Shown here piece by piece: positions 37,294 through 41,234 of a stretch of 64,000 bases of DNA; position 1 is the first letter of the stretch; every line of letters starts with the position of its first letter. The position numbers and the translations under genes are program-made. This stretch comes from Anarhynchus alexandrinus (taxonomy: Eukaryota; Chordata; Aves; Charadriiformes; Charadriidae): positions 20,726 to 84,725 of the forward strand of contig VUYV01000740.1 of the NCBI GenBank assembly GCA_008711295.1, given 5' to 3'. Under the pieces are notes generated by a model that worked only from the letters and a program-made list of their open reading frames with translations, did no database searches and was not told the origin of the DNA.

Positions 37294-37374
37294 GTCTGCT
37301 GGCCATGGGCAACCTGATAAAGGTATTGGGCAAAGATTTAGAAAACTGTCCTCATTTTTTCCTGGATTTTGAAA
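37294..37374 (+). CDS. CYRI alternative first coding exon A
   Basis: The acceptor TTTCTCTCGCTCAG ends at 37293. The ATG is at 37305 and the donor GAAA-GTAAGT follows 37374. It encodes 23 residues starting MGNLIKVLGKDLEN and ending FFLDFE, then one base that completes Asn with the next exon. It resembles the CYRIA and CYRIB exons that begin MGNLIKV or MGNLLKVLTRE. Confidence 0.85.
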
Positions 37375-40300
37375 GTAAGTCCTGTGAGCAGGGTGGGCGC
37401 GGGGAGGGGGCCGGGGCCGCCGCCACGGCTGCTCTCCGGAAGATGGGGACAGGCACAATGTCCCCGAGCAGCCCCGTGTCCCCAGGCGCCTCGGGGCAGC
37501 GCTGGACATGCCCCGCAAAAGGGCTGAGTGGGGCAGGGGAGTGGGACCCCAAGAGATGCCTCGTCCCTGAAAGCGCAGGGAGACATCCCTGGCAGAGTGG
37601 CGGGGATGCAGGATACATCCCGGCAGCAGGACGTGGCTCATGAGGACCTCAGGCACGTGCCTGATGCTGCTAGTCGATGGCACCGGGTGGCCACGTGGCA
37701 TGTCCCCTGCCACCGCCACGGCAGGGACAGCCTGGGGTACGGGGGTGCTGGGGAAGGAGGAGGGAAGGATCCGTGCCTCCTGCCCTGCCGGGAGGGACAG
37801 CACGGTGGTCACAGCCTGTGCCTGAGGGACGGGGATCAGGGACACCGGTTCAGTCCGGGAGGACCTGCCCCAGCTTCCCACTGGCCTGGGCTAAGTGGGT
37901 CAGGAGAGCATCGCTCTCAGACCTCCCAGGCTGGACACGGGGGTGTACGGAAGATGGTGGCCGCCGTGGCCTGCCCTTCCTCCCTCTCTCCCCCTTCCTC
38001 CCCGGGGCTCGGCTCAGAGCAAGAGCGAAGACGGTAAAAATAGTGCAGCAGCAACAGCTCGCCCCGGCGGGGAGAGACCGTGCGCAGCTCACCGCACCGC
38101 CTCCGGCACCGGCGCAGCCCAAAATAGCCGGGGCTGGGGTCACACAGCCACCCTGCTCCCAGGGCAAGGGACCTTCCTGGCTCCTTGTGGGTGCTTTGAG
38201 GCAGCACAGCCTTCACCCACCTCCAGCCCCCTCCGCAGCCCCCCAGCATGGGGACAAGGCTGTGGGGGCTTCCCGGGACCCTCTGTTTCAGGGCTGGCTC
38301 TGCAGCTAGATGGGGGATGCCCTTAGCCAAGACTTTGGGGACTCACTCACCGCTTCGCCCTCCTCGCCGAAGCCCGGCGGCTCTCTCCTCCCTTCGCTCC
38401 TTCCTCTCCATCACCCCATCCGCCAGCGCTCATCACCATCGAGGGGGGGGAAGAGGCTGCAGCCTGGGGCCGGGAGTAGCCACGGGGTCACCGCCAGCCG
38501 GCCCGGAGCTCCCCGAGCCCCCGGGGAGCAGCGGGGGGGAGGACGGGGGCTCTGGCCGCCACCGGCCGCTGCCCGCAGCCCAGCACCTCTTCCCCGAGCA
38601 CCACCTCACCATCATGCTTTTTTTCCTCTTGTTTCTTCTCTTGCAGGTTTCACATGGGGAACCTTCTTAAAGTGTTGACTTATAACGAACTTGACCAAGG
38701 CCCTAATTTTTTCCTTGACTTTGAAAGTGAGATGGGATTTTTATTTTCCTTTTTTGTTTCGTACTTATTCTGAGTTCCACATCCACGCCATTTTGAGTTC
38801 TCGTCCCCGTCGCCCATCGCATCGCGCCCATCCCAGACGTCCTCCCCCCACCTTCGCCGTCCGGGGGTCTCCCCGGGGAGGGGGGGCAGACCCATGGCCG
38901 GGGGCTATCGCTCCGCACCTCTTCCCCGGGGCAGTTTGCAGCCCGTCGGGGCCAACCCGGGGCTGGGGGCTGCTCGGGGACTCCCCCCCTGAGCAGGACC
39001 GCGGTCGCAGGGCAGCCAGGACTCACCCCTACCTGCCCCCCCTCCGCGGCTTGGCTCGAGGTCGGGCAAGGAGACGGACCGGGGGGAGAAACCTGCCAGG
39101 AAGGGCTGCGGGCTGGCGGGAGAGCTGCGGGACGGGGTGCTGGCACCCCACTCCGGCTCTCGCCGCCCAGGACCCCGCTCAGAGCCCTCCGGGTTTCTCT
39201 CCCCGGGGCGCTGCCCTGCAGATGCGCAGCCGACGGAGGCCGAGACGGCAGTGTGGAACCAGGTGAATGCCGTGCTGGAGGAGGCGCAGGCTGTCCTGGC
39301 TGAGCTGCAGTCATACACGGGTGCCGGGCAGGAGATTCGAGAGGTGGGTGCAGCCCCGGCGCCCGCTGCCCACCCACCCACCCACCCACCATGGCTTGGG
39401 ACAACCGCTGGTGCTCTCCCCCCCGCCACAGGCCATCCAAAACCCTGGGGACCTGCGGCTGCAGGAGAGGGCCTGGAGCGCCGTCTGCCCCCTCGTTGCC
39501 AAGCTGAAGCGCTTCTACGAGTTCTCCCTGCGGCTGGGTGAGCGCCCCGAGCCCCCGTCCCCACTCCCTGCATCCCCCTGTTGCATCCCGCATCCCTCCC
39601 CAGATGCAGGAATGGGGCAGGTTGGGGGGAGCCCAGGCCGTGGTGAGGATGCTGTGCTGCCCCATGCCTCAGTTTCCCCAGCCGGGGCCGGGGCTGGGGA
39701 GCTTCACAGGAGCAGGATGGGGACCAGCGGTGCTTTGTCCCCAGAGAACGCCCTGCGGAGCCTGCTGGAGGCCCTCACCAGCCCCCCGTATGCCCCGACC
39801 CAGCACCTCGAGCGGGAGCAAGCCTTGGCCAAGCAGTTCGCCGAGATCCTCCACTTCACCCTCAGCTTTGATGAGCTCAAGGTACCTCCCCGTGCCCCCG
39901 GCGTGGGACAAGGGCTGGTGGGGGCCCGCGCAAAAGCTGTGAGCCAGCACAGTCCCTTGGGACCCCTGAGCTGGCCGTGGCCCCCACCTTGGCCCCTAAT
40001 GCGGGGCTGCCCCCGGCAGATGACCAACCCTGCCATCCAGAATGACTTCAGCTACTACAGAAGGACCATCAGCCGAAATCGCATTAACAACCTGCAGGTG
40101 AGAGGACGGTGCTGTGTTCCCCTCCCCTGCCCAGGGATGGCCTCCCCCAGGGTGGAGGTCACAGGACTGGGGACACCCAGGGGGCAGTCAGCCATCCCAA
40201 TGGCCCCCATCATCTCCCCCCGCAGCTGGACGCAGAGAGCGAGGTGAACAACGAGATGGCCAACAGGATGTCCCTCTTCTATGCCGAGGCCACCCCCATG

Positions 40301-41234
40301 CTCAAAACACTCAGCAATGCCACCACCAAATTTGTCTCGGAGGTGAGCAAGGCCGGGGGGGACCCTCGGGGTGGGGGGACACCCCCCTCCAGCCCTGGCA
40401 CCATGCCGGGGTCAGGAGGGGGAATGGCAGCCGGGACCTGTTGGGTTTCAGAACAAAACCCTCCCCATTGAGGACACGACCGACTGCCTGAGCACTATGG
40501 CCTGCGTCTGCAGGGTGATGCTGGAGACCCCGTAAGTACCCCGTGTGGGGAGGGGGGGACATCTCGGTGCCGGGGTCCCTGTGCCACCCACCCAGGCTCA
40601 GCCGGCCCCTCTCCTGGCGCAGGGAGTACCGGAGCCGCTTCACCAACACTGAGACCCTCCTCTTCTGCATGAGGGTGATGGTTGGCGTCATTATCCTCTA
40701 CGACCACGTCCACCCCGTGGGGGCCTTCGCAAAGACCTCCAAGATCGATGTGAGTGGCCGTGGCATGCGCTGGGGGGGGGTCATAGCCATCCCACTCATC
40801 CCAGTGCAGCAGTGATGCCCAGGTGTCCCTCTCACTGGATGTCCCCTGTGGGGACATCTCTATCTGAGCTGGTCCAGAGGGGAAATCATCCCCCCTGAGC
40901 AGCGAGGAGGAGGATGGGGAGGAAGGGGAGCAGCCCCCGCAGCGCATCCGGGCTCTCACAGCCTCTCTCATTCCCCCCACCAGATGAAAGGCTGCATCAA
41001 AGTCTTGAAAGACCAACCCTCAACCAGCACCGAGGGGCTCCTGAATGCTCTGAGGTGAGCTGGGGGGCCGGGGGACATGGGGGAGGGACGTGGGACCCCC
41101 TGCCGGCACTGTGGGATGGCGGCAGAGAGGGTCGGCGTGCCGCAGGGTGACTGTCACCCTCTCCATCCAGGTACACCACTCGGCACCTCAACGACGACAC
41201 CACATCCAAACAGATCCGGGCCCTGCTGCAGTGA
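37305..41234 (+). CDS. CYRI-family Rac1 interactor, third paralogue
   Basis: CYRI proteins (formerly FAM49) bind active Rac1 and oppose the Scar/WAVE complex, limiting lamellipodia. Shared coding exons: 39222-39343, 39432-39537, 39745-39881, 40020-40097, 40226-40342, 40452-40531, 40623-40749, 40984-41054 and 41171-41234. They follow one of two first exons (37305-37374 or 38654-38726), giving 323 or 324 residues, as in CYRIA and CYRIB. All junctions are GT-AG with matching phase. Arg160-Arg161 in FSYYRRT, the Rac1-contact pair of CYRIB, are kept, as is Gly2 in MGNL for myristoylation. The sequence mixes CYRIA-like (NPGDLRLQE) and CYRIB-like (AKQFAEILHFTL, VGAFAKTSKID) stretches and differs from both (TNTETLLFCMRV, QPSTSTEGLLN). 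Its position between HPCAL4 and TRIT1 is that of neither mammalian gene. I leave the symbol blank because no settled name is known to me. Confidence 0.93.
38647..38726 (+). CDS. CYRI alternative first coding exon B
   Basis: The acceptor TTTCTTCTCTTGCAG ends at 38646. The ATG is at 38654 and the donor GAAA-GTGAGA follows 38726. It encodes 24 residues, MGNLLKVLTYNELDQ through GPNFFLDFE, ending in the same phase as exon A. It closely matches the known CYRIB variant beginning MGNLLKVLTCTDLEQ. Exons A and B cannot both be read in one protein without a stretch repeating the start, so they are best seen as mutually exclusive. Confidence 0.9.

What the first reader, a model, noticed from the sequence alone, without database searches (positions are those of the whole stretch)
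37305..41234. A third CYRI (FAM49) gene in the MYCL block
The exons encode a complete 323/324-residue CYRI protein distinct from CYRIA and CYRIB. From established human maps, CYRIA lies near MYCN (with NT5C1B and HPCAL1), CYRIB near MYC (with NCALD on the same arm), and MYCL lies beside TRIT1 with NT5C1A and HPCAL4. This gene sits between HPCAL4 and TRIT1, exactly where the MYCL-linked CYRI ohnologue should be. I infer that it is the third whole-genome-duplication copy, kept here and lost in mammals. It implies an extra Rac1/Scar-WAVE brake in birds.
Basis: partly seen in the sequence, partly recalled or inferred. Interest (0 to 1): 0.8.

Follow-up and report, generated by a model that had tools for sequence, protein, structure and literature searches.

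The report
Third CYRI gene beside MYCL
This bird DNA carries an intact third copy of a gene family that restrains the cell-movement switch Rac1; the copy is real and ancient but already recorded as Fam49c, and it also occurs in fish, frogs, reptiles and at least one marsupial.

Summary
Window 37305-41234 (+) holds an intact CYRI gene: two alternative first coding exons plus nine shared exons, all GT/AG, giving 323 and 324 aa. The genome has three CYRI loci. In a 36-row tree this clade (98/91) excludes CYRIA (97/92) and CYRIB (100/100) and reaches a shark. The order MYCL-CYRI-HPCAL4-NT5C1 matches MYC family-CYRIA-HPCAL4 paralogue-NT5C1 family on another contig, and eight internal exons have equal lengths in the three genes.

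Corrections: it is not confined to birds and not lost in all mammals (wombat 97%); and two papers already name a third member, Fam49c, absent from human (PMC8872254, PMC8513284); NCBI annotates orthologues, often as 'CYRI A-like'.

Possibly fresh: first exons of two matching types occur in all three paralogues, so the pair probably predates the duplications; [quoted passage not shown] Interest modest.

The parts
37305..37374 (+). Alternative first coding exon, type A (MGNLIKVLGKDLENCPHFFLDFE); acceptor AG 11 nt upstream of ATG, donor GTAAGT
   Evidence: the same 23 residues in 47 of 144 retrieved proteins
38654..38726 (+). Alternative first coding exon, type B (MGNLLKVLTYNELDQGPNFFLDFE); acceptor AG 7 nt upstream of ATG, donor GTGAGA
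   Evidence: the same 24 residues in 29 of 144 retrieved proteins
39222..39343 (+). Shared exon 2 (122 nt)
   Evidence: AG/GT, same length in CYRIA and CYRIB
39432..39537 (+). Shared exon 3 (106 nt)
39745..39881 (+). Shared exon 4 (137 nt)
40020..40097 (+). Shared exon 5 (78 nt): Rac1-contact stretch MTNPAIQNDFSYYRR
40226..40342 (+). Shared exon 6 (117 nt)
40452..40531 (+). Shared exon 7 (80 nt)
40623..40749 (+). Shared exon 8 (127 nt)
40984..41054 (+). Shared exon 9 (71 nt)
41171..41234 (+). Last coding exon with stop TGA (64 nt)
   Evidence: not compared with the paralogues
41780..41785 (+). AATAAA, a possible polyadenylation signal about 545 nt after the stop
   Evidence: read directly from the sequence; not tested
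14889..17801 (-).
27408..28660 (-). HPCAL4-type neuronal calcium-sensor gene (EF-hand in two of three ORFs; first ORF holds MGKHSSKLAPEMLDDLV..., no Pfam match on its own)
   Evidence: the name HPCAL4 is recalled
52964..63562 (-). TRIT1-type tRNA isopentenyltransferase ORFs (IPPT, PF01715, in two of them; the others by recalled motifs)
   Evidence: the name TRIT1 is recalled

Best explanation
The gene is the third CYRI paralogue, Fam49c, kept in the MYCL paralogon after the early-vertebrate genome duplications. It makes two proteins that differ only in their first 23-24 residues, by choosing one of two mutually exclusive first coding exons. Each begins MGN, so each should be N-myristoylated and membrane-bound; the shared CYRI domain then binds GTP-Rac1 through the same face as CYFIP and competes with the Scar/WAVE complex, limiting branched-actin protrusion. 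Shown here: gene structure, clade, gene order, identity of the Rac1-contact residues compared. Inferred: exclusive use of the first exons, myristoylation, Rac1 binding and the braking role of this copy.
For: Intact model; PF07159; three CYRI loci in the genome; clades C 98/91, A 97/92, B 100/100, with a sawshark row in C and chimaera rows in A and B; parallel gene order on C739 and C79; equal lengths of the 8 internal exons compared in the three genes; 13 of 13 Rac1-interface positions named in PMC7955166 identical in the A, B and C rows compared; 98-100% identity to the best bird records that carry the same first exon (P0001-P0003, P0005) and 92-94% to teleost records such as P0016, P0019, P0020, P0023, a sign of strong purifying selection; P0076, an unbroken 291-aa frame on a 1,853-base contig that by eye matches the Gallus record P0005, so spliced, suggesting transcription.
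Against: No binding, localisation or expression data for this copy were available. The tree is unrooted (no invertebrate or cyclostome row), so timing rests on cartilaginous-fish rows and gene order. The sawshark branch is long (0.157) and could be another duplicate. No MYC, and so no CYRIB-MYC link, was found in the assembly. Double inclusion of exons 1A and 1B cannot be ruled out, though it would shift the frame. Many records score lower (down to 73-90% in birds and 79-91% in fish) because they carry the other first exon or broken models. PMC7955166 gives residue 147 as differing between CYRI isoforms (M147N), whereas my six A rows have M there; I could not explain this. The source label 'lgn' of P0076 is not explained by the tool.
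Confidence: 0.9

Rival explanations
1. A recent lineage-specific duplicate of CYRIA or CYRIB.
For: Public records name many orthologues 'CYRI A-like', FAM49A or FAM49B.
Against: 82% and 81% identity to one bird CYRIA and one bird CYRIB core, which are 79% identical to each other; separate clades with a shark or chimaera in each; three different contigs, with MYCL beside this copy and another MYC-family gene beside CYRIA.
Confidence: 0.02
2. A retrocopy or decayed copy without function.
For: None found.
Against: Introns at matching places (8 internal exons of equal length in the three genes), full reading frame, near-identity to the best bird records.
Confidence: 0.01
3. A CYRI paralogue that has shifted role: it keeps the fold but acts mainly as a heterodimer partner that tunes CYRIA and CYRIB rather than as a Rac1 trap itself.
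For: CYRIs dimerise through the Rac1-binding face (PMC7955166, passages); C has a few fixed differences from the A and B rows compared, e.g. 45 D to E, 247 E to T, 308 K to R, 313 E to D.
Against: The 13 Rac1-interface positions compared are unchanged, so direct binding is expected too.
Confidence: 0.07

Closest known systems
Fam49c (third FAM49 member named in PMC8872254 and PMC8513284)
   Same: A third DUF1394 gene absent from human and present in birds and other vertebrates; almost certainly the same gene.
   Different: The passages I read give no sequence, map position, first-exon pair or ohnologue argument. One of the sources that PMC8872254 cites for it (PMC8236918) had no Fam49c in the passages found.
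CYRIB / FAM49B
   Same: Same domain, same lengths of the eight internal exons compared, same Rac1-contact residues, same two types of first exon (human isoforms 1 and 3 differ in the first 25 aa; pigeon P0117 and whale-shark 6yjj).
   Different: 81% identical core; separate clade and locus (C32).
CYRIA / FAM49A
   Same: Same domain and lengths of the eight internal exons compared; both first-exon types side by side on C79.
   Different: 82% identical core; separate clade; lies in the parallel MYC-family block on C79.
CYFIP1/2 DUF1394 domain
   Same: Fold and Rac1 face shared with CYRI according to PMC7955166 and PMC7543656 (passages).
   Different: A WAVE-complex subunit; about 18% identity to CYRI according to PMC7955166; not compared here.

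Membership tests
CYRI / FAM49 (PF07159) | Whole-length CYRIA-B Rac1-binding domain | tested here: met
   E 3.6e-143, profile 2-301 of 301
CYRI / FAM49 (PF07159) | Rac1-contact residues including R160/R161 | tested here: met
   13 of 13 positions identical to CYRI-B (6 A, 8 B, 15 C rows of equal length; 8 of 37 rows left out for unequal length)
CYRI / FAM49 (PF07159) | N-terminal Met-Gly (myristoylation site) | tested here: met
   both isoforms begin MGN; lipidation itself not testable
CYRI / FAM49 (PF07159) | Binds active Rac1 and opposes Scar/WAVE | not testable with these tools
   needs protein and cells
Third paralogue Fam49c | Clade separate from CYRIA and CYRIB across gnathostomes | tested here: met
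   C 98/91, A 97/92, B 100/100 (36 rows, unrooted)
Third paralogue Fam49c | Absent from human | not tested
   taken from passages of PMC8872254 and PMC8513284; no human genome was searched
Ohnologue of the MYC-family paralogon | Parallel order of MYC, CYRI, VSNL/HPCAL and NT5C1 genes in two blocks | tested here: met
   C739 and C79: same order for 4 of 4, same relative strand for 3 of 4
Ohnologue of the MYC-family paralogon | CYRIB block linked to MYC | tested here: inconclusive
   no MYC found in the assembly
Ohnologue of the MYC-family paralogon | Split dated between the vertebrate stem and crown gnathostomes with an outgroup | tested here: inconclusive
   one search has cartilaginous-fish rows but no invertebrate or cyclostome outgroup

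The most novel reading that the evidence does not exclude
The pair of alternative first coding exons is an ancestral switch of CYRI proteins, older than the vertebrate genome duplications and kept in parallel by all three paralogues. It chooses the membrane-anchor segment just after the myristoylated glycine (end of helix 1 and the helix 1-2 loop), and so where or how firmly each CYRI sits on membrane. In the CYRIA and CYRIB starts retrieved, the type B exon carries a cysteine (Cys10) and type A none; in amniote Fam49c the cysteine lies in type A (Cys15) and type B has none, which would fit a reversible second lipid (palmitate) whose exon was exchanged. Frog Fam49c (Cys16 in type B) and teleost Fam49c (Cys10 in type B) keep a cysteine in type B as well, so the exchange would be an amniote refinement.
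Probability: 0.25. Interest if true: 0.5.

Novelty: already known. Interest (0 to 1): 0.3.

Why it matters
It confirms that birds, and by the records retrieved also reptiles, frogs, teleosts and a marsupial, carry a third Rac1-restraining CYRI gene, so mouse and human work on two may understate redundancy, and bird, frog or fish knockouts must consider the third. The matching first-exon pairs give a testable reason for a loop that structural work called poorly conserved. Current database names ('CYRI A-like', FAM49A, FAM49B) hide the gene and could mislead comparative work.

Tried and rejected
Recent-duplicate, retrocopy and pseudogene readings were rejected. The MYC-CYRIB link was sought by Myc_N profile and by MYCL bHLH exon: 3 and 2 matches, all on C739 or C79, so untested. 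CYRIB's first exons in this genome: the type B exon starts (YLNMGNLL) at L009:4303 and runs into an assembly gap at 4327-4404; type A was not found in the 50 kb upstream that I read. Literature: FAM49C gave 2 papers; fam49al gave 0; FAM49A with ohnolog gave 0; a six-term paralogon search needing four terms gave 0; CYRI-C/CYRIC/fam49al/FAM49A-like gave 58 papers, of which the 20 listed were unrelated by title. Searches listed 20 of 11,258, 12 of 659, 8 of 3,220 and 3 of 3 papers; by title those lists added nothing on Fam49c except PMC8872254 again. Absence in placentals is not shown by my protein searches: only 120 of 1,921 and 120 of 1,792 hits were listed, hits are clusters at 90% identity and mostly one name per cluster is visible, so a placental member could be hidden; the placental names that I saw in those lists were at 80-81% to the window protein and fell to CYRIA, or were CYRIB records.

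Full report
What is there. On the + strand, 37305-41234 holds a complete CYRI gene. Two first coding exons, 37305-37374 (type A) and 38654-38726 (type B), each precede the same nine exons; the introns read GT...AG and both products are intact, 323 and 324 aa. The 323-aa protein matches PF07159 over nearly the whole profile (2-301 of 301, E 3.6e-143) and the solved CYRI-B chains. It is 100% identical over its length to annotated proteins of Falco cherrug and Harpia harpyja (P0001, P0002). If both first exons were spliced together the frame would shift and stop within exon 1B (one nucleotide left over from 1A plus seven before the ATG; read), so the two are probably alternatives. Records of orthologues show both forms from one gene or contig: Ascaphus gene FKM82_013849 (P0026 type A, P0073 type B) and Chlamydotis isoforms on contigs of the same length (P0009 type A, P0046 type B).

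How many CYRI genes. A six-frame scan of the window's own genome (1.19 Gb, 1,076 contigs) gave 18 exon-level matches, on three contigs only: C32, C79 and C739, the last being the window. By tblastn with three named bird proteins C32 is CYRIB and C79 is CYRIA. The eight internal exons have the same lengths in the three genes: 122, 106, 137, 78, 117, 80, 127, 71 nt (the last coding exon was not compared). The window core is 82% identical to a bird CYRIA and 81% to a bird CYRIB, which are 79% identical to each other.

Tree. From 144 retrieved proteins (the best 120 of 1,921 and the best 120 of 1,792, overlapping) I chose 35, plus the window and the whale-shark CYRI-B of PDB 6yjj. Group labels were set beforehand from names and identity; one row (Pleurodeles, P0142) fell out because my script did not locate its core. 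In the 36-row tree (29 different) the three groups are each one side of a branch: C 98/91, A 97/92, B 100/100. C holds birds, lizards, turtles, wombat, frogs, teleosts and a sawshark; A and B each hold a chimaera. The root is not inferred and the sawshark branch is long.

Gene neighbourhood. On C739 the order is NT5C1-type (-), HPCAL4-type (-), CYRI (+), TRIT1-type (-), MYCL (-), within about 55 kb. MYCL lies just outside the window. On C79 the order is a MYC-family gene at 1.697 Mb (+), CYRIA at 2.10 Mb (-), the closest HPCAL4 paralogue (94% over one exon) at 2.80 Mb (+), and a second NT5C1-type gene at 3.265 Mb (-). Turned round, the two blocks agree in order for 4 of 4 genes and in strand for 3 of 4; the nucleotidase is flipped. 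Other HPCAL4-like exons (79-81%) lie on C52, C107 and C198 and a third NT5C1-type gene on C294, none of them on a contig with a CYRI gene. Names such as MYCN, MYCL, VSNL1, NT5C1A, HPCAL4 and TRIT1 come from recall; the families come from the calls. The CYRIB-MYC leg could not be tested since no MYC was found.

How it probably works. CYRI proteins bind GTP-Rac1 by a face shared with CYFIP and so compete with Scar/WAVE; they also form dimers through the same face (PMC7955166, passages). Thirteen residues that this paper names at or near the contact (64, 68, 147, 150, 153, 154, 157, 160, 161, 185, 188, 189, 192) are identical in the rows compared, window included (6 A, 8 B, 15 C; 8 of 37 rows of unequal length left out). 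The paper itself says 147 differs between CYRI isoforms, which my A rows do not show. So the third protein most likely does the same job. That step is inference.

The first-exon pair. All three paralogues have both kinds of first exon: CYRIA has both on C79; the pigeon CYRIB model P0117 holds both; C has both in birds, tuatara, a frog and, with a divergent type B, teleosts. Of the 144 proteins' N-termini, 120 starts fitted the search pattern (P0117 counts twice), and 47 of them are the identical 23 residues of C type A; the divergent teleost type B did not fit it. Human FAM49B isoforms 1 and 3 also differ only in the first 25 residues (PMC8872254, passages). The 6yjj chain carries a type A start and the 7ajk chain a type B start. 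Kaplan et al. say that most whale-shark/human substitutions fall in residues 10-18 and call the region poorly conserved (PMC7543656, passages); I read this as a comparison of two exon types rather than fast evolution. I did not see that remark in the passages I read; it may exist elsewhere.

What is known. PMC8872254 and PMC8513284 (passages; [quoted passage not shown] The statement is brief; of its cited sources I opened PMC8236918 (passages), which speaks of two paralogues in mammalian cells and showed no Fam49c. NCBI and UniRef records hold orthologues under 'CYRI A-like', FAM49A or FAM49B. A 291-aa frame on a 1,853-base contig (P0076) that by eye matches the Gallus record suggests the chicken gene is transcribed; the tool does not explain that source.

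Verdict. The gene is known; the paralogon test and the parallel first-exon pairs are the useful additions.

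Noticed in passing
G000:C294:579074-582584: A third PF06189 (NT5C1-type) nucleotidase gene in this genome besides those on C739 and C79; human has two, from recall. Possibly another extra paralogue.
   Followed up: no
whole genome G000: No third MYC-family locus (MYC itself) found by Myc_N profile or by the MYCL bHLH exon; probably missing from the assembly.
   Followed up: partly
PDB 6yjj and 7ajk: The whale-shark and the other full-length CYRI-B chain carry different first-exon types, so their N-terminal differences are not simple species divergence.
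   Followed up: partly
proteins listed, e.g. P0001, P0005, P0007, P0048, P0100: Orthologues of this gene carry inconsistent public names (CYRI A-like, CYRI A, FAM49A, FAM49B-like, FAM49B), which hides the third paralogue.
   Followed up: partly
window 61349 (+) and L019:997-1074 (-): Similar translated stretch (...GNGFKLEEGRF... in the window, GNGFKLE in L019) in two unrelated places, so probably repeat-derived.
   Followed up: no
window 13763-14184: A 422-base run of N, an assembly gap beside the NT5C1-type gene.
   Followed up: no
P0052, P0053, P0055, P0070: Several bird models start from GC-rich sequence directly upstream of exon 2 (...PADAQPT...), a predicted third N-terminus that may be an annotation artefact.
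   Followed up: no
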